Below are positions 3,991 through 48,146 of a stretch of 64,000 bases of DNA, piece by piece (within the stretch, counting starts at the first letter, position 1; every line of letters starts with the position of its first letter). The notes below the pieces were generated by a model. It had not been told where the DNA came from. It saw only the letters and a list, made by a program, of their open reading frames with translations, and searched no databases. Source of the DNA: Hyaloperonospora brassicae (taxonomy: Eukaryota > Oomycota > Peronosporomycetes > Peronosporales > Peronosporaceae); contig CANTFL010001406.1 of NCBI GenBank assembly GCA_947650285.1, forward strand, positions 124,001 through 188,000, written 5' to 3'. A program made the position numbers and the translations under genes.

Positions 3991-4020
3991 TAATTGTAGG
4001 TTACGCCTTCAGGGTCTAGA

Positions 4021-4092
4021 CGAGTTTCGCCGACCGGAACTCGACGAGTTTTATTAGCCGAACCTCGACGAGTTTTGCCGACCGAAATTCGA
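4021..4092. repeat. 24-bp tandem repeat, three units
   Basis: Three adjacent 24-bp units (4021-4044, 4045-4068, 4069-4092) share a CGAG-TTT start and a TCGA end, with differences in the middle. Looser relatives lie just upstream (around 3970) and downstream. The unit contains short self-complementary pieces (TCGACGAG-like). No reading frame uses it. Confidence 0.8.
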
Positions 4093-4933
4093 CAAAAATC
4101 GCGGACTTACGCCGCCAATTTAAGCCTCCCTTCGGAATCCAAAATATGCCTTGCCTTAGTGGTCACGTCTACTGGATAAGCTTGGGCTAAAACGTATATA
4201 TCCGCCCGGAAACCGCTATGTACTTAAGGGTGGGCCAGCTCGTGCGACCGATCCGGCTCCAGTGCGATGTGGTCGGGTGCGTCGCAAGACAGCAATGCGT
4301 CCTGCCACACGCAGGACGCACGATGATCTGCGCCGATGACTCCGCTTGACGAGAGGGGTTCAGCGAAATGAGTGATGAAAAGCATCATGATCGCGTCTCC
4401 GCCTTGGTTTCTGGTCTGCACGCACCCGCGTGCTACACGGCAAGTGCTAATTGATTGTTTTTGATGGTACTTAGAAGGTAAGGTCATCGCGATCGTATCT
4501 CCGTATGTGCGCATGACTTATTATATTGTGGAGATGACGTTGCTACTCTAGCTATTGGGACGCAAAGAGATAGAGAGACGAAACTCGGTATTCTGAGTCG
4601 GGAATTGATGAAATATGTCAAAAGAAACAGTAACGTTGTTACCACGAGACGAATAACTAGTATCATGCCGGATTCAGCGACTTCTGCGAGTTTGGCATGC
4701 AAAGTCCATTTGTTTCCAGAAAAACTTCTTCACCTTTTGTTTTCGGATACTATGGAGCGCGATGAAATAACTTGACCTTCGACAACAGCAACGTCAGCCG
4801 GTCGCAAACTACTTCAATATTAAACGCGGGATTTCGTCATGGAGTTGTGGCGACGCGCTTCCAGCAATTTCGGCATCAGGTGTGTCCTGTGCAATGACAT
4901 CGGTGCATCGTGGGTGCTCACACGGACCAGACA

Positions 4934-5323
4934 TGTAACGGGGCACACCCTTGCGTGAACTTAACGCAACGGTATCGGTGCCCCGACAGACGTACACAAG
5001 GCAAGCGAGGAAGCGTAGGTAGGGTAAAAGGAGAACTGTTATATTCATATAATTAAGTCGTTTAACTACTGTCTCTCTGTTTGACCTAACTTAATTATGC
5101 TAATATAACTGAGTGTATGGTGACGTCTCGTCACCACTCATTGAGCGCGTCATGCGGCGATTGGTGGGTTGATATCATCAAGATATCAACCAATGAGCAG
5201 ACTCTTTGGTCGACCCTTCAATATCACCGCTTCGGTGATATTGTTTAAAGAATATTCAACTTCATATCTTTATTGTCACTTTTCTTAAAGTGACAATTCC
5301 ATGTAACGGGCTGCCCCGTTACA
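4934..5323 (-). repeat. LTR (3' LTR relative to gag-pol), copy C
   Basis: It starts TGTAACGGGGCAC and ends CCCCGTTACA, the TG...CA boundary expected of an LTR. The two ends are imperfect inverted repeats, so orientation is ambiguous from the LTR alone. It aligns with the LTRs at 12445-12914 and 47680-48146, best around the conserved ATGTAACGGGCT block near the right end. It contains a chain of hairpins: 5167-5191 (9-bp stem), 5219-5243 (11-bp stem, 3-nt loop) and 5272-5297 (11-bp stem, 4-nt loop). Confidence 0.8.
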
Positions 5324-5455
5324 TCACACCCATTTTAACTGATAGTCACCGTGTGACTATCGAAAATATGGTGGCCACCCGTTGGTCACCATTGGGACAG
5401 GGAGCACTTGTTGGGTCCGTTTCATTCACTTTCCGCTCGACCTCGCATAGTAAAC

Positions 5456-7048
5456 ATGTCTATGCAGGGTGACTTAAGACCTACACAGCCTCTGTGCCTG
5501 TGCCAGCTTCTGCGGCAGCCGATTCGTCGTCTGCTGCTCGTTCTTCGCCTGCAGCAAGAGGTGCTGCAGGTGCACGCGGTAGAGCACCGTGTGCGCATGA
5601 TGACCCCGACATTAAGGTCATCTACTCTGGCGAGTCAGACGTGTCTGAATCCGGCAATGCTGCAGAGGCGTCTCGCTCACCGGCGACGCCTCAGTGTTCG
5701 CCAAGACCACTGCCGAACGAACGGACTCGTGAGTTACAACACAGTCTGTTCGGCAGTGATGACGAATCTAGTGATGAGTATGTTTGCTCATCACCGCAAT
5801 TAGCTCGTGCTCCTTCGCACGAGCGATTTGACGATGGTGCAACCCATCGTCATACTGACAACCGTGGTACCAACAAAGGTATCACCGTGAAGCGTGATGA
5901 GCTGAAGCCGTGGCGTTTGCCCGAACGGCTCATTAATGGCTTGTCTTACGAGACAAGCCAACACCATCGAATACCCTTTTCGATGCGACTGATATTCACG
6001 GCTTGAGTTCCAGCGCGAAGAACTTTCGCGCTGAAGAAGATTTTTATCTCGATGTCTTCCTTAGACATCGATGGTACAATGGCAACCAAATGCGTGACAA
6101 GTCCTCGCTTTTGGCTGCGTGGAACGCGTTCGTCCAAAACGTAAAGAATTTTGGACGAGAAGGGTGGCTCAAGATACTTGAGGCAACACGCCTCAGGTTC
6201 GAACGGCGAACGCCAACCGGTGACAGGTACCGATTGCACTGTTTGTCGAGTGAGGCAGACATTTCTTGCCTCACAGGGGGAGACCCTTGTGCGAGTTGTG
6301 TTGACAACTCGCAGCGTGCACATAGGGATGTTTATTCCCTAAGTTCGCCCTGGGGAAGGGCACACATTTCGGCTGAGATGCAAACTTGCAATCCGTCTAC
6401 AGGCTCCTAGGGCGCGTGTTTACCGATGGGCTCCAGGACCAATAAGATGAGGTTCTTCATACTGGCGGACTGGACCTTAAACGTCCATCAACAGCTGAGA
6501 GCAAAGCTACCAGCTGTTCCAAGAGGGTGGATACCCCCGCCACTGGACGAGGTAGCTCGTCCTTGATCCTGAATCGTCACGGTGATTCAAGATACGCTCC
6601 ACGAGAAAGCGTTGACCACTGTGAGTATCCACCAATTGATTCGGTGGAGGAGGACAGACCTCCTCCAGATGATTCGTCTCACCATCTCGACCCTTACGAG
6701 CTGGATCGCGCAAACAATGAATTGCGCGATGACTCGAAGCACGAGCGCGACCGGCGCTACGCTTTGACTGATACTGTGCGGAAGAAACGCAAGGATCACG
6801 AGGCTTATCGGGCGAGGGATCGCGCCGATTATACCACAGCGCAGCTTTAGGTCGAGCGGGATGTCCGCTCCCATTACGGCGAGCTGGCGACAGCTCGCGG
6901 GGAGATATCTCGGTTGAGTTCCGAGGTATCATATCTGCACGACCAGACGGATCGTCTGGAGCGCAAACGCAAGAACTTGATGGATGTTCTTGAACTTGGG
7001 GGCTATCTTCATCGGAAGAAGAAGGCTCGTACTGACAGTACGACCTGA
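5456..7048 (+). pseudogene. Antisense ORF of the Ty3 element (coiled-coil protein), frameshifted
   Basis: This frame lies on the strand opposite to gag-pol and starts inside the 3' LTR side. The likely start is the ATG at 5456 (MSMQGD). A frameshift near 5485 leads into an Ala/Ser/Pro-rich acidic region (to about 5990). A second shift leads to a Cys-containing block (about 5985-6410) with the motifs RRTPTGDRYRLHC and TGGDPCASC. After another shift comes a charged, coiled-coil C-terminus ending at 7048, with one in-frame TAG at 6848. The last 540 bases overlap the 3' end of pol on the other strand, chromodomain included. I recall similar proteins from Peronosporaceae repeats, but I know no function. 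The coherent composition over three blocks argues for a real, now decayed gene rather than a chance shadow of pol. Confidence 0.6.
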
Positions 7049-10000
7049 GCCTCCCCACGTAAAACGTAGGATGCGTGCGCATCTTACGTGGCAATTCGGT
7101 CGTGTATGCATTGCCCTTGCGATGCAACACTCGAAATGGCCCAATGTACTTCGGCAGTAGTTTACTACTGCCGACACTAGTGACTGCGTGTCCAGGTAAG
7201 TTTACCGTAGACAGTAGCACTAGGTCATTAACTTTAAATGAAAGAACATTTGCTCTTCCATTCTTGTCTGCAGTCCTTTTCTGACGGTCCACCGCATTTG
7301 CGATGGAGTCCTGAACGAGACGGACTACCGCTTCTCGAGTCAGCAGGAAGTTCTCTGCTGACTCTTTGTTTTGTCTATCAGTGCGCTTCGTGCGCACTGC
7401 TAAGAAATTGTTCTCTTCTTCAGCGAGGTTGTCTTCTTCCTCGCTGGAATAATCGTTGACGATGCTGAATATACCAGCATCGTCATCATCATCCGATTCA
7501 ATAATAACGTCGTCGCTATTATTGAGGTGATCTTCTTCATCGATGTCGACCTGATCGACGTCGGCATCATACGTGACGACGTTAGCGTCGACACGTGATG
7601 AGCAAGAGCCAAAACGGTTTTTGCTCGAGCTAGTCCCTTCCCCCTTATCCAAGCGTTACACTCTAGAAGGGAGGGCACACGTTGATGGCGTGAGCCATTC
7701 ACGTAGAACGGTGTGTGCTGTGTGGAAGCATGCACCGAATTATTGATTGCAAATTCCACCATGGGTAGGAATTCGCCTTAAATCGGAAACGAGTGGACAT
7801 ATCCTCGAAGAATCTCTTCGAGGACACGGTTCGCACGTTCCGTCTGACCATCTGTTTCGGGATGGTCGAAAGTAGACATCTTCAATCGTGTTCCGAGAGA
7901 ACGGAACACGGTTTGCCAAAATGCCGCCGTGAACCGAGGGTCACGGTCGGATACGAGTTCACGGGGTTAACCGTGGAGTCTAAAGACCGTGTCGAGAAAG
8001 ACACGACCACAACCGGGTGCCTTGATGGACTCGGGCACTGCAGCAAGATGCACCATCTTGCTGAACCGGTCAACGAACATAAGAATACCATTATTCTTGT
8101 GGGCGTCTTCGGGAAAAACGAAGACGAAGTCCATTGAAACGGACTGCCATCACTCTGCGGAACAGGCAGAGGCTGCAATGGCGCTCGGGATGAAGGACTA
8201 GGCTTTACCCGTTGGCAAACCTCGCAAGCACGTATGTACTTGCGGACAAACAGATACTGGTGGGGCCAGTAAAAGTCACGACTTACCGTGAGGTAAGTCT
8301 TTTCTCTACCACGATAGCCGCTTGTTGGGCATCGTGACACTCATACATGATGCGTAAACGCAAATCATGATGAGCGGGTACGACGACACGAGGCGTGTCG
8401 TCGGCAACAGCTGTTTAGTACAGCAATCCGTTGTGTGTACTGTACCGATCCGATGAGGATCGGTACAAAGCTGTTAAATCCCTCATGCATTACTAGATGG
8501 ATTCACCAGATGATTCATCAATCGCAGAAGATCCTTATCTTCCGCGTATGCCTTTCGTACGTCGTCAAGTAAACTTGACGACGGGACACTGACTGACAGT
8601 GTCGCAACAGTGGGCTTACCCTCACTGTTGGATTGTGCGTCCGGCTCGAAATCGGGCCGGCGCGAAAGCGCATCAGCGACGACATTAAGTCGTCCTGGTT
8701 TATGCTCCACGGAGAAGTTATACTTCGCGAAGAAAGACAGCCACCTCGCCATCCTTTGCGAGAGGTGTGGGCTGTTTACGGCCGTGCGTAATGACGCATG
8801 GTCCGTATAGACAACAAACGGTCTATCTCCCAAGAGATAGACGCTAAACATAGCCAGTGTATATTTCATGGCATGAATCTCCTTGTCATGCACTGGGTAA
8901 TTACGTTCATCTACTTGCAGCTGACGCGACTGATAACAGATGACGCGCTCCGCGCCATCTGCATCGAACTGCATTAACGCACAGCCGATTGCAAAATCGC
9001 TGGCGTCACAGACCACATGAAATGGTATGTCCTGATCTGCAATAGCCAAGATCGGCGACTGCATCAGCCCCTCCGCTTGATACCTTCGAAGGAACGCTGG
9101 CACTCAGCGTCCCATGACCACTTGACATTTTTTTTGAGCAAGCAAGAAAGATGAACAGTCATCTTGGCGTAGTTGCGCGAGTACTTGTGCAAGTACGCCG
9201 CTAGACCAAGGAACTTCCTTAGTCCCTTGACATCTACTGGCACTGGCCAGTCGGTAATCGCCTTGATCTTTTCGGGATCAGGAGGTACGCCGTGTATACC
9301 CACGATGCACCCAAGAAGTGGTATTTCGCTAGCCGCGAATATACACTTCTTGAGGTTGGTGTACAACTTATGCTTGCGCATAAGTTGGAGAGCCCGATGA
9401 ACGTGAGCTATGTGAACATCATCGTTTGTTTTCCCGTCCATATCCCGGCTATGGACGAACACATCGTCGAAGTAACTCGGTGCGAAGTCTCGCACCGGTC
9501 TCAACAGATTTGTGACGCATCTGTTGAATGTCGCAGAGCATTGCTCAGCCCATGTAACATCACTAGCCACTTCCACAGCATCCCGCTGGGGGTACTCACT
9601 GTTGTGAACGGGATATCCCGTTCACGCATGAGGATCTGATAGAATCCATGCATCAGATCCATGGACGAGAAGATGGTACTCTTTGACATACCATCTATGA
9701 TTACGTCCTTCCTCGGTATCGGCGTCTGAGCCGGTACCGTTGCAGCATTCAATTTGTTATATGCGTGCACTATCCGCCTTTCTCTTGGGGCATTTTACAC
9801 ACAGAAGGTCGGAGAGCGGTGAGAGAAAGTTATTCCCTCACACGGCCCGCTGCAAAGCGATCGGCAAAGAACTTGTCGATCGCTAGTACTTTTTTCACGA
9901 GTCAGTGGCCACTGCTTCATGACACAGTACTTCGAGCCTGATCTGAGCCCGATCTCGTGTCGATTGCGTTTGTCCTTAGACAACTCGCATGGTACGGATT

Positions 10001-10547
10001 TAGGGAACACATCCTTGACTTCGATCAAATACTTATACATTGGATTTGCCTGAATCGACTCCCAGGATTGAGATGTGTATCGTTCAGTCCAAGTCTTCTC
10101 ATCGAGGACACTTTCTTCCATCTATGAGCTGCTGAGAATTCGTTCGTTCTCAGCAAATACTGTTGCCGACCGAATATCGGCCACATACTCATCCTCTGTG
10201 ACGAGTATGCATATCTGCTCGACCTTGCCACTAAGCAGATCACGCAAGAATCGTTTGGGTTCAAGAGTTGTCAAATTAGTTATCTCCGAAGTTAACTTCG
10301 AAGGCACAATCAGATCGAGCGTATAAGCGCCTACGCTTGATCCTTCATTGACCAAGACGTTCAACGTCTCAGTTCTATTCCTGGATATCTTTTCCGCAGG
10401 CTGATGAGGGCTTGTCCACTGAGGTTGATGAGAGCTTGATCTCTCAGCAAGTACCTCTTGAGGAATTCCTTTTTCTAGCACGTGGGGATAGATCCCTCGA
10501 CGTCTTCTAAATGTATCTGTGAAACCACAGTCAGGTCCCGATTCCAT
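6507..10547 (-). pseudogene. Ty3/Gypsy pol relic: RT, RNase H, integrase, chromodomain
   Basis: Reading right to left on the minus strand: a pre-RT segment (10547-9795); RT (9770-9064) with NKLN, MDLMHGFYQI and the active-site YFDD; RNase H (9103-8483) with VVCDASDFAIG and TDHASLR; integrase with the zinc-binding HHCC part near 8340-8190 (RACEVCQRVKP), the DFVF and SKMVHLAA core near 8140-8040, and VEFAINNSVHAST at 7760-7700. A C-terminal chromodomain lies at 6620-6507 (FLVERILNHRDD, YLVQWRGYPPSWNSW). At least four frameshifts are visible, for example between GLSNA and TFNRC in RT (about 9545) and before WQSVSMDFVF in integrase (about 8150). A TAG ends the frame just after the chromodomain tryptophan. 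The enzyme would be inactive. Confidence 0.88.
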
Positions 10548-11003
10548 ACGGTCGACTCTCCAGTCGACCTAGGATAACCGTGTTGCCGTTTCTAGACATC
10601 CATTCAGTATACCTAGGGTGTTGCCTGCTCGCCATGTATCTATGTCTCATTCCACTCGACTTTTTTGATTAGTATACCCTCGGCCTGCCTGTACTTTTGT
10701 ACAAACTCCGGGAGCTTGCTTCACAGTGTAATTATCAGCTACACTTAAGTCTTGTGCAGTCGTGCTAACGACCGTACCGCAAGTGAGGCAATAGCCGTCA
10801 CTCGCAGCACAATAACACGCTTGCGTATGCTTCAAAACGTTTATAAGTAGGCTAATTTGATGGGCCAGAGGCAGAAATCTTCACGGATCGATGCTGCCAG
10901 CTCACTCGTGGATCGTACCTTCTGAGCTAAGAAAATCCTAATATGACATCAAACTTATCACCGAGATCCAGTACGATGAAATCATCATCGTAATGTGTCC
11001 CCT

Positions 11004-11210
11004 CTAATGTGTAGTGGATTCCAATATACTTTTCTCAACGGTTATCGATACGCCTGAGCCAAGGCTCACCGTCGTCCTCGTTCGGGGAATATGGCGCCCA
11101 ACGAACTTGAGCTTACGAACCTCTATTGACTGGCGAAGAACAAAATTGTTCCACATCTCACAGTCAACAAGAGCACGTAGTGAGAAATCTTCTGTCACTT
11201 GTAAATTCAA
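11004..11210 (-). pseudogene. Aspartic protease remnant of the Ty3 element
   Basis: The frame contains RALVDCEMWNNF, a damaged form of the retroelement protease active site (expected D-C/S/T-G-A), followed by LRQS and VSLGSGVSITV, which match the flap side of oomycete Ty3 proteases. The Gly after Cys is replaced by Glu and the frame ends early, so the protease is dead. It lies between the gag remnant and RT as expected for gag-pro-pol order on this strand. Confidence 0.7.
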
Positions 11211-11379
11211 TGTGATGAGATCCTTGAGGTTGCTGGATCAGTAGGGCGCTCCGCCTCCATTGATTCTGACAATTTCTAAATGGTCCGATTTGCTGTTGTG
11301 GTTTCTCAGCAGCGTTCGACTCACGCCCGTTGCCCCTTTTTGGCAAATGGACGACCATTCCGCTCAGCACTGTTTGGTA

Positions 11380-12420
11380 CTAGGCGTGTGACACTAAACT
11401 CGTAAGCGTATAGTTCAAACTTATGGAAGCAATTGCACTTCTGCAATCGCCTGTCGTGTGAAGAAAGAGGTTCTCGCTCTCAACATAACAGATATTCATT
11501 GGTTCTGTACCTTCAGTCTCTTGACGTCTCGGTGGACAATGAGAGCTTGTGCTATCATGATCTTGTCTCATGCTTAAGTCTTCGTGTTCCGCTGCTGCAA
11601 TAGCATCTTCTAGAGTATTCACAGGTGGTTCCTGACGGGACCGTCTTCGAGCCCTCGTGTGAACACAGTAATCAACGTGTGTTCTTTTATCGGGTTTGCA
11701 GTTATACTACTCGCAAGGAGTCTCATATGCTGAGCGTAAGCGTGCACATCACACTTACCTTATTAAAGTTTCACGAGCTCTAATTGAGCCCTAAACTCAG
11801 CCCTTAGCGGCTTAAATGAGAGTTTGAGCCGGGTTATGGGTAACTCGAGCGCCTCAAAAGCCTATGGGTCGCTCATCTCCAGCTCTAAGGTCCAAGTCTT
11901 GGCACTTCCTGCCAAGTGGGATCATGCAAATATTATTTTCGTTTGCTCATCGTTGATGCGACCTGCCTATATGTATATGTATAGTTCGACGGACAATGAT
12001 AACAGGAAGTCTTTTTCGACTCCTCTGTACTTAGAGATGTCAACCTTCAAGATTTCGAGACGATGCGTGTGTCGTCCCGCCCACAGCTTCCTTAAATTGC
12101 TGCTGTCTCAACAGCTATGTCTGTTGAGCACCTAGTTCTCTCAACTACTCAGCCTGTTGAGATCCTTGTTGGTGAAGCGAGGTTACTTTCTCTCGATCAG
12201 CGCCAAGTTCATGTTGAATAAACCTGGTGATGGCGGCTTGTTGGTGGTCTCTGTCACGAGATACCAACATAGCGGTAACGCCAATGTAGCCCACAATAGA
12301 GATCATTCACCCTACCGCGGCCCATTTGAGTTCACTCAATGTGGTGAAGCCTTCACGTGTGGCGTGAAAGCTCTGTCCTTCATCTCTCATGTTCATAATA
12401 AATAAGGTGGGTGGTCGTTG
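11380..12420 (-). pseudogene. Ty3 gag remnant
   Basis: The recognisable part is 11680-11380 on the minus strand: TVFTRGLEDGPVRNHL, then NTLEDAIAAAEHEDLSMRQ and PRRQETEGTEPMNICYVE. These are the C-terminal part of an oomycete Ty3 Gag, normally followed by a zinc knuckle. The knuckle is lost in frameshifts. The rest up to the primer-binding site (about 12420) has no long frame left. Hairpins are sparser in this decayed part than in pol. Confidence 0.65.
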
Positions 12421-12423
12421 GAA

Positions 12424-12442
12424 GGACCACAAAGTGCTACCA
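12424..12442 (-). other. Primer-binding site (initiator tRNA-Met type)
   Basis: Two bases inside the 5' LTR (LTR A) the minus strand reads TGGTAGCACTTTGTGG. The TGGTAGCA start is what a primer-binding site for initiator tRNA-Met looks like; later positions have decayed. Its position supports the minus-strand orientation of the element and LTR A as the 5' LTR. Confidence 0.6.
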
Positions 12443-12444
12443 GG

Positions 12445-12914
12445 TGTAAAGGGGCACTCTCTTGCTCAGATAACTGAGCAAGGCCTTGTATTGATAACAA
12501 TACAAGGATGCGTACGCCCTACGTCACGTACACGCGGCATGAGGGAGCGAGACCAAGACAATAGAGAAATAAAAGCTCTGTCTTGAGGGAAAAGTATAAC
12601 TGTTATTTAATATAGTTATTTTCTTTCTGAATCATTTTTCGTCTTAAACTAACTATACACAACTACTGTTTCCTATGTGGGTCTTCTGTCCACCACCTGT
12701 TGCCCGCGTCCAGCAGCGATTGGTGGTTAAATTGGTTGATGTACACGGTAGATCAACCAAGTAGTGAACCCCTCCACGAATATTACCCTTAGAGGTAATA
12801 TTCCGACATCATCACTTTTCTCGAATGATGTTGATTAAATATTATTAGAATCGATAATATTCAAAAATTGGTACTTTTGTGCCAATTGTTATGTAACGGG
12901 CTCACCTCGGGACA
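12445..12914 (-). repeat. LTR (5' LTR relative to gag-pol), copy A
   Basis: Related to LTR C and to the solo LTR at 47680-48146. The left end reads TGTAAAGGGGCAC; the right end is damaged (CTCGGGACA instead of CCCCGTTACA). Hairpins: 12461-12482 (9-bp stem, 4-nt loop), 12484-12507 (10-bp stem), 12732-12760 (9), 12778-12803 (10), 12806-12831 (7), 12838-12861 (8) and 12866-12887 (9 with one T/G mismatch). They are nearly contiguous, so much of the LTR is stem. Confidence 0.8.
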
Positions 12915-13446
12915 GGCAATAATCATGTGTCGAAATACCAGTTGCTTGAAATTAAATCCTATGATGTGAACTGTACAATTTATCCTTTCAGCACGTCACT
13001 CTTATCTGCTTGCGCATTTTACCGCATCGGAGGCTCAACCTTTTCTATTACTTTCGCCTTTCTACCAGAATTGACGTTCTTTGCGTGAGCACCTTTTCGA
13101 TCAAGTAACTTTTCCTCCTTAACAATTATGGGCAATACCTCTTGTAATAGAATTTGCCTTCAGGATGATATCACTCATGATTATTCTTCTTCTTGACAGT
13201 TCTCTTCGTGTCACCTCTTAAGGTTTGCCTCATGACACCTGTTGATGCAGTAGCCGGGCTACTATGCTTCTTCTTCCGTTGTGCTCATGAATGCACAATT
13301 TATCCAGTCTTTACTGCGCGACTAGGCTGTGAGAATCATCTCGCGAGCTATCTCAGCTGAAGATTTACTACTATTTGATCGAGATTGAACTTTTCTTTTT
13401 GGTTCATTATAACAAATCTGCATGGGGAGGCTGCGCAGCATCCTGT

Positions 13447-13998
13447 CTACCATCTTAAATCATACACAGGAGAATACGAATTCTTGACTTGGTCTTTGAT
13501 GTCGAATAAAGTATGCAAATGACTTTGCTCGTCACAATTTAGACATAAATGGGTCCTGCGTAGCTCGCTTTGGAAGCGGTTTACTTTCTGCGCAATCATG
13601 GCTGAGTTTAAATCCCATATAAATTGAGCAGGGCTCGTGACACATCTCTGTACCAATCTTCATCGACACTGCTTGCTTGGTCAGCTTCATCCACAACTAG
13701 CCATGAATAAGAATATTCGAGGTGAATATCTCATATCGAGGCTTCTTGAATTTATCCTTCGTTGCTTAATCCTAGGATGCGTCTTTCACCATGATTCCCG
13801 CTGCGGTCTCATCTAGTAGGTATTGCTCAAACGCTTGGAGAGTCGCATGCTATTAAAAGCTCCCGTCTTCTCTCCATTCCATTTTAATGGAGTGCCTTGC
13901 GATCTCAACGTAACTTCCTTGAACATTTTTCTCTTGCCGTCCTCAGATTTCGATTCTAAATACATGATGCAGTAGTTAATGCTGTCTAATTTATTCAC
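13447..13998 (-). pseudogene. Ty1/Copia gag relic
   Basis: On the minus strand, near 13900-13850, the frame reads GTPLKWNGEKTGAF, matching the LKWNGEKW start of oomycete Copia Gag. Further on (13600-13450) LNCDEQSHLHTLFDIKDQVKN resembles the H-x3-F-x-I-KDQL part of Copia Gag. Several stops and shifts separate the pieces. No integrase or RT of the same element is seen next to it. Confidence 0.45.
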
Positions 13999-14258
13999 TA
14001 CTTAGTAGCAGGTCGTCCCTGGGCTCAAAATCCTAATTGAGTATGGGTAAGAAGAAAAACGACTTCTCACTCAAAAACAACTTGTTATGTTGGGGTTGCA
14101 TTGGTACTGAGTCTACGCAAAGCATGTATATACATATCAAAATGAACCTTATACGAAATACCTCATAGAAGACCTTCGCTGTAAAAGTTATTATCAACAG
14201 ACACCCTCTACATCATTGTCCGACGGTGACTTGGATCCGGTTTCCAACTAATTATGCA

Positions 14259-47679: not shown

Positions 47680-48146
47680 TGTAACGGGGCACGCTCTTAC
47701 CAGATAGCTGGCAAGACCTTGTGATGACTGAACAAAAGGCTGCGTGCTACCGACGTCCCGTACACGTGGCGTGAGGAAGCGCGAGGAAGTAGACCGAACT
47801 AGAAAGCTCTGTCTAAGGGAAAGTAGAACTGTATTTAATATAGTTCGGTTTCTTCAATAAACCATCTTTTGTCTTGATCTAACTGTATCAAACAACAATC
47901 TCTTATGTGGGTTTCTTGCTCACCACCCATTGCGCGCGTCCAGCAGTGATTGGTGGCTAATTTGGTTGATGTACCGTGTACATCAACCAAGAAGTGAAGC
48001 AACCACGAATAACTAACTTCGGGGGTAATAATCTGCCAACATTACCTCTTATCGAGTAATGTCAATTTAATATTATCTAAATGGATAAATATTTATAAAT
48101 TGATACATTCGTATCAATTTTCATGTAACGGGCTCACCCCGGTACA
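47680..48146. repeat. Solo LTR, copy B, related to the Ty3 LTRs at 4.9 and 12.4 kb
   Basis: 467 bp, starting TGTAACGGGGCACGC and ending CACCCCGGTACA. No retroelement coding sequence is attached on either side, so it is a solo LTR or fragment; it abuts the LINE relic. It aligns along its length with LTR A. Hairpins: 47962-47990 (13-bp stem, 3-nt loop), 48039-48062 (7-bp stem) and 48097-48120 (10-bp stem, 4-nt loop). Some hairpins that are perfect in LTR A are damaged here, for example the one corresponding to 12484-12507. No target-site duplication is visible. Confidence 0.8.

What the first reader, a model, noticed from the sequence alone, without database searches (positions are those of the whole stretch)
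4934..12914. A Ty3 retroelement built from a near-continuous chain of short hairpins
The element is packed with nearly perfect inverted repeats with tiny loops. Examples with stems of 9 bp or more and loops of 2-11 nt: 5167-5191, 5219-5243, 5272-5297, 5938-5959, 6011-6033, 6130-6158, 6290-6313, 6705-6730, 7337-7364, 7802-7824, 8041-8063, 8381-8403, 8441-8467, 8560-8583, 8821-8842, 9364-9387, 9604-9625 (22-nt perfect palindrome), 9632-9660, 10130-10155, 12461-12482, 12484-12507, 12732-12760, 12778-12803. Dozens more have 6-8 bp stems. My rough expectation for random DNA is 8000 positions x about 10 loop sizes x 4^-9, well under one 9-bp stem, against 23 listed. The pattern spans LTR, antisense frame and pol, and I did not notice it in the flanking single-copy genes. 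Possible explanations: selected RNA structure (packaging, resistance to small-RNA targeting), or quasi-palindrome correction by template switching during reverse transcription.
Basis: seen in the sequence. Interest (0 to 1): 0.9.

Follow-up and report, generated by a model that had tools for sequence, protein, structure and literature searches.

The report
Retrotransposon woven from perfect hairpins
A mobile element of a plant-parasitic water mould is built almost end to end from short perfect hairpins, fitted into its genes largely through silent changes and seemingly kept by selection while it multiplies, an architecture for which I found no earlier description.

Summary
All 23 listed hairpins exist; shuffled sequence gives almost none. 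The window copy is decayed: a young copy of its family has 136 perfect hairpins in 8.0 kb, one per 59 nt, ending at the LTRs. Synonymous shuffles of pol give 4.7 on average, against 69. Four other sampled elements of the same chromodomain Ty3 clade in this genome (55-60% nucleotide identity) share the trait, mostly at other positions. Six sampled elements outside the clade do not. Stems are Watson-Crick only; G-U is no commoner than A-C in the main count. Variants private to one copy ignore stems; shared variants avoid them and tend to create new ones. Compensatory double changes occur, mostly transitions; changes are not confined to one arm. I read this as selection, through mostly synonymous single steps, for local self-folding of both strands. 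Fold-back copying by the reverse transcriptase is the main rival. The benefit is inferred: perhaps keeping sense and antisense strands from annealing or from small-RNA targeting.

The parts
4933..12914 (-). Ty3 chromodomain LTR retrotransposon, decayed copy; 4933-11219 is 89.6% and 11223-12465 is 77.6% identical to copy L032
   Evidence: BLASTN; Pfam
4934..5323 (-). 3' LTR (91% identical to the LTR of L032)
12466..12914 (-). Presumed 5' LTR of another subfamily; no BLASTN match to the LTR of L032; a 36-nt 78% match to the left LTR
   Evidence: inference
5494..6006 (+). 170-aa ORF overlapping the place of the antisense ORF (535 aa in L032) between chromodomain and 3' LTR; presumed remnant, frame not checked
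   Evidence: position correspondence
6507..7652 (-). SH3_Tf2-1 and chromodomain part
7882..8340 (-). Integrase H2C2 zinc-binding part
8483..9103 (-). RNase H part
9064..9576 (-). Reverse transcriptase part
11223..12465 (-). gag side (77.6% identical to L032)
5118..9696 (.). Chain of perfect short hairpins, dense part
12461..12861 (.). Chain of perfect short hairpins at the 5' end of the element
5167..5191 (.). hairpin, stem 10 loop 5
5219..5243 (.). hairpin, stem 11 loop 3
5272..5297 (.). hairpin, stem 11 loop 4
5937..5960 (.). hairpin, stem 10 loop 4
6011..6033 (.). hairpin, stem 9 loop 5
6130..6158 (.). hairpin, stem 10 loop 9
6290..6313 (.). hairpin, stem 10 loop 4
6705..6730 (.). hairpin, stem 9 loop 8
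7337..7364 (.). hairpin, stem 10 loop 8
7802..7824 (.). hairpin, stem 10 loop 3
8041..8063 (.). hairpin, stem 10 loop 3
8381..8403 (.). hairpin, stem 10 loop 3
8441..8467 (.). hairpin, stem 11 loop 5
8560..8583 (.). hairpin, stem 11 loop 2
8821..8842 (.). hairpin, stem 9 loop 4
9364..9387 (.). hairpin, stem 10 loop 4
9604..9625 (.). 22-nt perfect palindrome, stem 11 loop 0
9632..9660 (.). hairpin, stem 9 loop 11
10130..10155 (.). hairpin, stem 9 loop 8
12461..12482 (.). hairpin, stem 9 loop 4
12484..12507 (.). hairpin, stem 10 loop 4
12732..12760 (.). hairpin, stem 9 loop 11
12778..12803 (.). hairpin, stem 10 loop 6

Best explanation
A clade of chromodomain Ty3 retrotransposons has been shaped, mostly by synonymous single-base steps, so that its nucleic acid folds on itself about every 59 nt into a perfect Watson-Crick hairpin, usually 20-28 nt long, from LTR to LTR. 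Shown here: the density, its restriction to this clade among the elements sampled in this genome, its partial loss in the older window copy, and the avoidance of stems by variants shared between copies. Inferred: that selection during the element's replication maintains the hairpins, and that both strands matter, because wobble pairs that help only one strand are not favoured. Proposed benefit, not tested: self-folded sense RNA and antisense RNA (this family carries an antisense ORF with relatives in other species), or single-stranded cDNA, anneal less easily to complementary strands and to small-RNA guides, so the element escapes double-stranded-RNA silencing.
For: Density: 136 hairpins in L032. 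Pol: 69 against 4.7 on average and at most 11 in 100 synonymous shuffles. The excess lies in inverted repeats with loops <=14 (116 against 1.6); direct repeats up to 50 nt apart number 7 against 4.8. 26 of 26 300-nt windows fold with z below -4.8 on either strand, mean -9.8 and -9.3; three copia stretches, two RVT_3-type Ty3 stretches and a host CDS average -0.3 to +0.7. Selection, over 52 loci: of 865 private variants 226 lie in stems (null 247 +- 14) and 33 create or extend stems (null 32); of 341 shared variants 63 lie in stems (null 101) and 20 create or extend stems (null 11); at third codon positions 37 of 212 shared variants lie in stems (null 66) against 107 of 378 private ones (null 114). 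Compensatory double changes, Watson-Crick of all doubles, with doubles of any kind expected: 5 of 6 (0.5), 9 of 11 (1.9), 13 of 16 (2.6) among L032, L048 and L037. Codon phases in pol 31:10:28 resemble the stepwise-synonymous simulation 122:48:88. Both strands: 136 stems allowing G-U, 137 allowing A-C in L032. An antisense ORF with relatives in Hyaloperonospora and Peronospora; family B has an antisense ORF at the corresponding place.
Against: The benefit is untested: no transcript, small-RNA or probing data were available. Host-wide silencing should press on copia and other Ty3 elements too, yet those sampled lack hairpins. The subfamily comparisons share sequences; with the more divergent L069 and L070 the double changes are 3 of 5, 3 of 6 and 5 of 9 with 1.9, 3.1 and 2.6 expected, a weaker signal. 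The excess of hairpin-creating shared variants is modest. The codon-phase pattern is clear in pol only: gag gives 8:5:8 and ORF3 4:8:6. One flank count favours G-U: the second pair outward from stems is G-U 15 and A-C 4 in L032. Loops of L032 are A-rich on the sense strand (32% against 25% in spacers; purine test p 0.007). Both hint at a sense-RNA role. A mismatch-correcting copy process would also deplete stems of shared variants.
Confidence: 0.55

Rival explanations
1. Mutational drive: the element's reverse transcriptase folds the growing cDNA back on itself at small quasi-palindromes, copies a few bases from the other arm, and so perfects hairpins cycle after cycle. Purifying selection on the proteins filters the result.
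For: Stems are Watson-Crick, as copying would give. The trait is confined to one clade among the elements sampled in one host, as a property of its reverse transcriptase would be. Positions are mostly not shared between families. Stem coverage is about equal in coding and non-coding parts.
Against: Private changes are no more often hairpin-creating than chance (33 of 865 against 32), though most of these are probably post-integration. Several one-sided changes in one stem are not confined to one arm (two changes: 15 one arm, 13 split; three or more: 1 one arm, 10 split, overlapping pairs of copies). Creating shared variants fall 10:10 on the arms. Watson-Crick double changes are mostly transitions (4 of 5, 9 of 9, 12 of 13) against 116 of 190 and 139 of 236 outside stems. 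Protein deviations are not clearly concentrated in stems.
Confidence: 0.25
2. Selection for sense-RNA structure only, such as many dispersed Gag-binding stem-loops for packaging, or genome-scale ordered RNA structure.
For: Very low folding energies throughout; A-rich loops on the sense strand of L032; second pair outward from stems G-U 15 against A-C 4; packaging by many dispersed signals is described for RNA viruses (PMC6281560, search listing and start of abstract only).
Against: No preference for G-U over A-C in stems (136 and 137; in subfamily copy L037 47 and 59), interior mismatches (12 and 10), nearest flanks (22 and 21) or one-sided changes (16 and 25 over three copies). Folding z-scores are alike on both strands. 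No common tetraloop: GNRA 2 and UNCG 0 of 23. Positions mostly not shared between families.
Confidence: 0.15
3. Chance, base composition, assembly artefact or an ordinary property of retrotransposons.
For: None found.
Against: Dinucleotide and codon shuffles; 29 of 29 other places with 64-71 hairpins per 4.2 kb; six control stretches of the same assembly at background.
Confidence: 0.01

Closest known systems
Ty3/Gypsy chromodomain LTR retrotransposons (Metaviridae; label recalled)
   Same: gag, protease, RT, RNase H, integrase, SH3_Tf2-1 and chromodomain, LTRs with TG...CA ends
   Different: Chain of about 136 perfect hairpins and a long antisense ORF before the 3' LTR
Genome-scale ordered RNA structure of RNA viruses (label recalled; five papers in the listing)
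   Same: Structure spread over the whole genome through coding regions
   Different: Here helices are short, perfect, local, without favour for G-U pairs, equal on both strands, and sit in a retrotransposon
Yeast Ty3 genomic RNA (PMC11381356, passages read)
   Same: Ty3 element with a folded genomic RNA; a palindrome used for dimerisation
   Different: The passages describe six 6-nt palindromes in 5' UTR and GAG, not a chain over the element
Chronos elements of oomycetes (PMC5348765, passages read)
   Same: Oomycete LTR elements with a chromodomain
   Different: Chronos has an extra archaeal-type RNase H; no second RNase H was found in this pol, and two Ty3 elements of this genome with an RVT_3-type RNase H lack hairpins
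Quasi-palindrome correction by template switching (recalled)
   Same: Would give perfect Watson-Crick hairpins
   Different: Arm and spectrum tests do not show its marks

Membership tests
Ty3/Gypsy chromodomain LTR retrotransposon | Gag with zinc knuckle; pol order protease-RT-RNaseH-integrase; chromodomain at the C-terminus | tested here: met
   on L032: Retrotrans_gag, Ty3_capsid, zf-CCHC_3 (below its cut-off), RVP_2, RVT_1, RT_RNaseH, Integrase_H2C2, rve, SH3_Tf2-1, Chromo
Ty3/Gypsy chromodomain LTR retrotransposon | Two near-identical LTRs with TG...CA ends and target-site duplication | tested here: met
   LTRs of 391-397 bp, 96.2-99.7% identical in 5 of 5 copies; TGTAACGGGG...CCCCGTTACA ends; 5-bp duplication read by eye in 3 of 5
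Chronos (oomycete LTR element with aRNH and chromodomain) | Additional archaeal-type RNase H | tested here: not met
   only RT_RNaseH models hit in pol
Genome-scale ordered RNA structure | Folding energy below shuffled controls along the whole genome | tested here: met
   26 of 26 windows on each strand of L032
Genome-scale ordered RNA structure | RNA helices with G-U pairs on the genomic strand | tested here: not met
   136 stems allowing G-U, 137 allowing A-C; one flank count (15 to 4) goes the other way
Genome-scale ordered RNA structure | Structure forms in the cell | not testable with these tools
   no probing data
Template-switch (quasi-palindrome) mutation | One arm overwritten, multi-base clusters in a single arm | tested here: not met
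   split arms; 10:10; small numbers
Template-switch (quasi-palindrome) mutation | Excess of hairpin-completing changes among new reverse-transcription products | tested here: inconclusive
   private variants show none, but most are probably post-integration

The most novel reading that the evidence does not exclude
A lineage of retrotransposons that carries genes on both strands has recoded its entire genome into a chain of minimal, perfect, both-strand hairpins, too short to be cut as double-stranded RNA but stable enough to stop sense and antisense strands, or small-RNA guides, from annealing: a whole-genome structural shield against RNA silencing written in synonymous codons.
Probability: 0.25. 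Interest if true: 0.95.

Novelty: new variant of a known kind. Interest (0 to 1): 0.82.

Why it matters
It is a genome-length structural code laid over coding sequence, with many natural copies (150 RNase H matches scored of 3,630 first-look candidates, families not separated), elements that lack it in the same nucleus, and decayed copies as neutral controls. That makes the question of how far genome-wide folding protects mobile elements from RNA silencing directly testable. If the copying rival is right instead, it would be a reverse transcriptase that writes hairpins into its own genome. Protein relatives bear the names of Peronospora, Phytophthora and Globisporangium species (120 of 2,890 hits listed), so the trait may be widespread; that is untested.

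Tried and rejected
Relatives' DNA was sought in viral contigs twice and genome contigs once: 1, 41 and 35 pattern matches, no confirmed relative; so the trait could not be checked in another species. A search of this genome with a Phytophthora protein (P0067) gave 50 matches that look like family A by place and frame length, and one with P0040 gave A and B, so no third branch of the clade was found here. Copied hairpin units: 68 of 716 7-mers of stems recur in more than one stem; the two LTR copies account for an unknown part, not separated. Stem and loop lengths are negatively correlated (rho -0.25, p 0.003), but chance pairing at the loop edge gives this trivially, so I do not use it. Hairpin size near the 25/26-nt transposon small RNAs of Phytophthora (PMC3804510, passages read) is suggestive only. 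Loop purine bias is significant in L032 (p 0.007) but not in the five other sequences. Pooled single one-sided changes lean to the 5' arm (72 to 47), but pairs of copies overlap, so I do not rely on it. The element L075, presumed non-LTR, folds below shuffles on average (z -3.6, one window -9.1) though it has 1 hairpin in 1.7 kb: unexplained. In one search, before duplicates were removed, private variants of young copies created stems 3 times in 180 (null 7.0 +- 2.6). Dropped rows: 7 of 59 loci were left out as the reference itself, the same place fetched twice, or presumed segmental duplicates (52 left); sites where more than half of the loci differ from L032 were left out of both. That the three copia stretches are three families was assumed from their different frame lengths. 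Papers: the listings (no hits) showed no earlier report; these are the searches behind that statement.
Full report
WHAT IS THERE. The window stretch 4933-12914 is a minus-strand Ty3 chromodomain retrotransposon (Pfam: reverse transcriptase, RNase H, integrase zinc domain, SH3_Tf2-1, chromodomain). 23 of 23 listed hairpins are present with perfect stems of 9-11 bp. In the five 2-kb bins of 4001-14000 there are 73 perfect hairpins with stem >=7 and loop <=12, against about 7.7 in dinucleotide shuffles, and 35 with stem >=9 against about 0.6. The remaining 27 bins hold 46 (shuffles 37) and 4 (shuffles 2.2).

THE FAMILY. The window lies in a genome of 100.6 Mb in 898 contigs. A 1.2-kb probe gave 2,013 first-look candidates, of which 40 were scored: the window itself and 39 places 93-94% identical to it. 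Of the 39, 29 were fetched with flanks (L002-L030): each has 64-71 hairpins with stem >=7 in 4.2 kb, against 37 in the window copy and 1.4-5.0 in shuffles. The window copy is thus a decayed one and has lost about half. Thirty further loci found by an RNase H model have 7.5-16.6 hairpins per kb against 0.2-1.3 in shuffles (at least three are places fetched before). Five complete copies (L031-L035) have LTRs of 391-397 bp that are 96.2-99.7% identical. In L032 there are 136 hairpins with stem >=7 and loop <=14 in 7,988 bp, mean centre spacing 58.9 nt. Density falls off outside the LTRs in four of five copies; in L033 a second dense stretch follows, where a neighbouring copy lies on the same contig. 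Of the 136, 110 are 20-28 nt long; 22-35% of bases are in stems in each part measured: LTRs, leader, gag, pol, ORF3, antisense ORF. Inverted repeats of 8 or more with loops up to 14 nt number 116 against 1.6 in shuffles; with loops of 15-99 nt 26 against 9.6; direct repeats are near background.

CODING. Shuffling synonymous codons of pol leaves 4.7 hairpins on average and at most 11 in 100 shuffles, against 69; with stem >=9 it is 0.44 against 37. The pol frame of L032 is open over 1,339 codons, and many of the 150 scored matches have the same open length. Compared with 18 related pol proteins, the family deviates at residues conserved in 90% or more at 2 of 92 stem codons and 8 of 275 non-stem codons; at 60-90% conserved residues 18 of 64 and 37 of 170; at less conserved ones 32 of 57 and 84 of 147. 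The hairpins were therefore fitted into the code without visible damage to the protein. Codon phases of hairpins in pol are 31 (positions 1-1/2-3), 10 (1-2/3-3) and 28 (1-3/2-2), while chance hairpins in shuffles split 116:154:198. The two classes that allow a wobble base in two of three pairs are the enriched ones. The shorter frames are less clear: gag 8:5:8, ORF3 4:8:6. A simulation on random artificial ORFs in which single synonymous steps towards pairing are accepted gave 122:48:88 over four runs; one in which whole arms are overwritten and only fully synonymous results kept stalled at 8-11 hairpins.

WHO HAS IT. A search with a protein named Phytophthora ramorum reverse transcriptase found related families in the same genome. 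Four sampled copies (L071 = B, L072 and L074 = C, L073 = D, which is 90% identical to C) have 11-16 hairpins in 2.0 kb against 1.2-1.6 shuffled, and the 3' end of B has 13 in 1.4 kb against 1.1. At 55-60% nucleotide identity, at most 2 of 33 hairpins of A share pairs with those of B, C or D; between B and C it is 4 of 17. The shift control averages 0.04-0.15, so a few positions may be old. Controls from the same assembly: three copia stretches 0, 0, 1 in 2.4 kb each; two Ty3 stretches with an RVT_3-type RNase H 0 and 1 in 1.7 kb; one further RVT_3-bearing element, presumed non-LTR, 1 in 1.7 kb. A tree of the RT region places A with Peronospora sequences and B/C with P. ramorum, with Globisporangium and other Phytophthora sequences between them, though nine of 26 inner forks are open. 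If the trait is ancestral to the clade, it should be common in oomycetes; this I could not test.

FOLDING. 26 of 26 300-nt windows of L032 fold better than shuffles on each strand (mean z -9.8 sense, -9.3 antisense; least negative -4.9). The window copy averages -5.3 (range -12.6 to -0.1), family B -2.6 to -3.2, family C -2.0. Copia, RVT_3-type Ty3 and a host coding sequence average between -0.3 and +0.7; L075 averages -3.6.

STRAND. An RNA fold kept by selection on one strand should contain G-U pairs more often than A-C. In most counts it does not. Stems of 8 or more pairs number 136 if G-U is allowed and 137 if A-C is allowed in L032, 139 and 138 in L033, 47 and 59 in L037, 56 and 56 in L048, 18 and 17 in B, 16 and 17 in C, 15 and 18 in D. 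Interior mismatches in L032 are 12 G-U and 10 A-C; pairs next to stems 22 and 21 outside, 18 and 15 inside; one-sided changes between subfamilies 16 and 25 summed over L037, L048 and L042. One count goes the other way: the second pair outward is G-U 15 and A-C 4. Loops of L032 are A-rich and C-poor on the sense strand (32.3% A against 25.2% in spacers, purines p 0.007), not significant by that test in five other sequences. On balance the stems look made for both strands, or for DNA, or by copying.

EVOLUTION. Old and young copies give a natural test. Over 52 loci, 865 variants seen in one locus only fall in stems 226 times (null 247 +- 14) and create or extend a stem 33 times (null 32 +- 6). 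Variants seen in 2-4 loci fall in stems 48 of 244 times (null 73 +- 8), in 5 or more loci 15 of 97 times (null 28 +- 4). They create stems 13 and 7 times (null 8.0 and 3.1). At third codon positions the stem counts are 28 of 149 (null 46) and 9 of 63 (null 20). So new mutations ignore the stems, and those that pass through replication avoid them and tend to add to them. Among L032, L048 and L037, double changes in paired bases keep Watson-Crick pairing in 5 of 6, 9 of 11 and 13 of 16 cases where 0.5, 1.9 and 2.6 double changes of any kind are expected. With the more divergent L069 and L070 it is 3 of 5, 3 of 6 and 5 of 9 (1.9, 3.1, 2.6 expected); with L038 1 of 3; with the window copy there is no double change. 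Watson-Crick double changes are transitions in 4 of 5, 9 of 9 and 12 of 13 cases of the first three, against 116 of 190 and 139 of 236 substitutions outside stems. Where a stem differs by two one-sided changes, they lie in one arm 15 times and are split 13 times; with three or more, 1 and 10. This is the mark of independent compensating steps more than of one arm being copied onto the other. These comparisons overlap in their sequences and the numbers are small.

MECHANISM. My best reading is selection on the replicating element for short local self-pairing of both strands. The clade restriction points to something the elements themselves bring. Family A carries a 535-residue antisense ORF before its 3' LTR whose protein has 12 relatives at E <= 0.001, among them Hyaloperonospora arabidopsidis and Peronospora matthiolae entries at 37-49% identity; that those relatives also lie antisense in Ty3 elements was not checked. 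Antisense transcription is therefore likely but inferred. Family B has an antisense ORF of at least 404 residues at the corresponding place, overlapping a frame in which I recognise a chromodomain by eye, without clear similarity to that of A. If both strands are transcribed, the element risks long double-stranded RNA; self-folded strands would anneal less. In Phytophthora, transposon loci yield 25/26-nt small RNAs (PMC3804510, passages read). This purpose is a hypothesis. The main rival, fold-back copying by the reverse transcriptase, explains Watson-Crick stems and clade restriction well, but lacks support in the arm and spectrum tests.

NOVELTY. The element belongs to a known kind; the hairpin architecture I did not find described in the searches, which cover open-licence papers only. 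On re-checking the calls I added counts that go against the reading (second outward pair, gag and ORF3 phases, L069/L070 comparisons); I left the odds as they were because the main tests are unchanged.

Noticed in passing
window 12466-12914 and 4934-5323: The two presumed LTRs of the window copy match each other only in short stretches, and gag is 77.6% identical to L032 while the rest is 89.6%; the copy may be a mosaic of two subfamilies or two elements.
   Followed up: partly
window 47962-48120: Two strong hairpins (stems 13 and 10, loops 3 and 4) 135 bp apart in a stretch outside the element; possibly a relict of a related element.
   Followed up: no
window 4296-4320: A stem-10 hairpin about 640 bp left of the LTR.
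   Followed up: no
L032:1193-2800 (+), window 5494-6006 (+): Antisense ORF whose protein relatives occur in Peronosporaceae; one is labelled RxLR effector candidate and one Core-binding domain protein by their sources, so element proteins may be mistaken for host genes.
   Followed up: partly
L078:2-1213 (-): Family B has an antisense ORF at the corresponding place without clear similarity to that of family A.
   Followed up: partly
LTR ends of L031-L035: LTRs end in a 10-bp inverted repeat TGTAACGGGG/CCCCGTTACA.
   Followed up: no
rows: Some copies have an open frame of 1601-1666 residues at pol, others 1339 residues with an overlapping chromodomain ORF.
   Followed up: no
L075: An RVT_3-bearing element, presumed non-LTR, has strong folding in one 300-nt window (z -9.1) with only one short perfect hairpin in 1.7 kb.
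   Followed up: no
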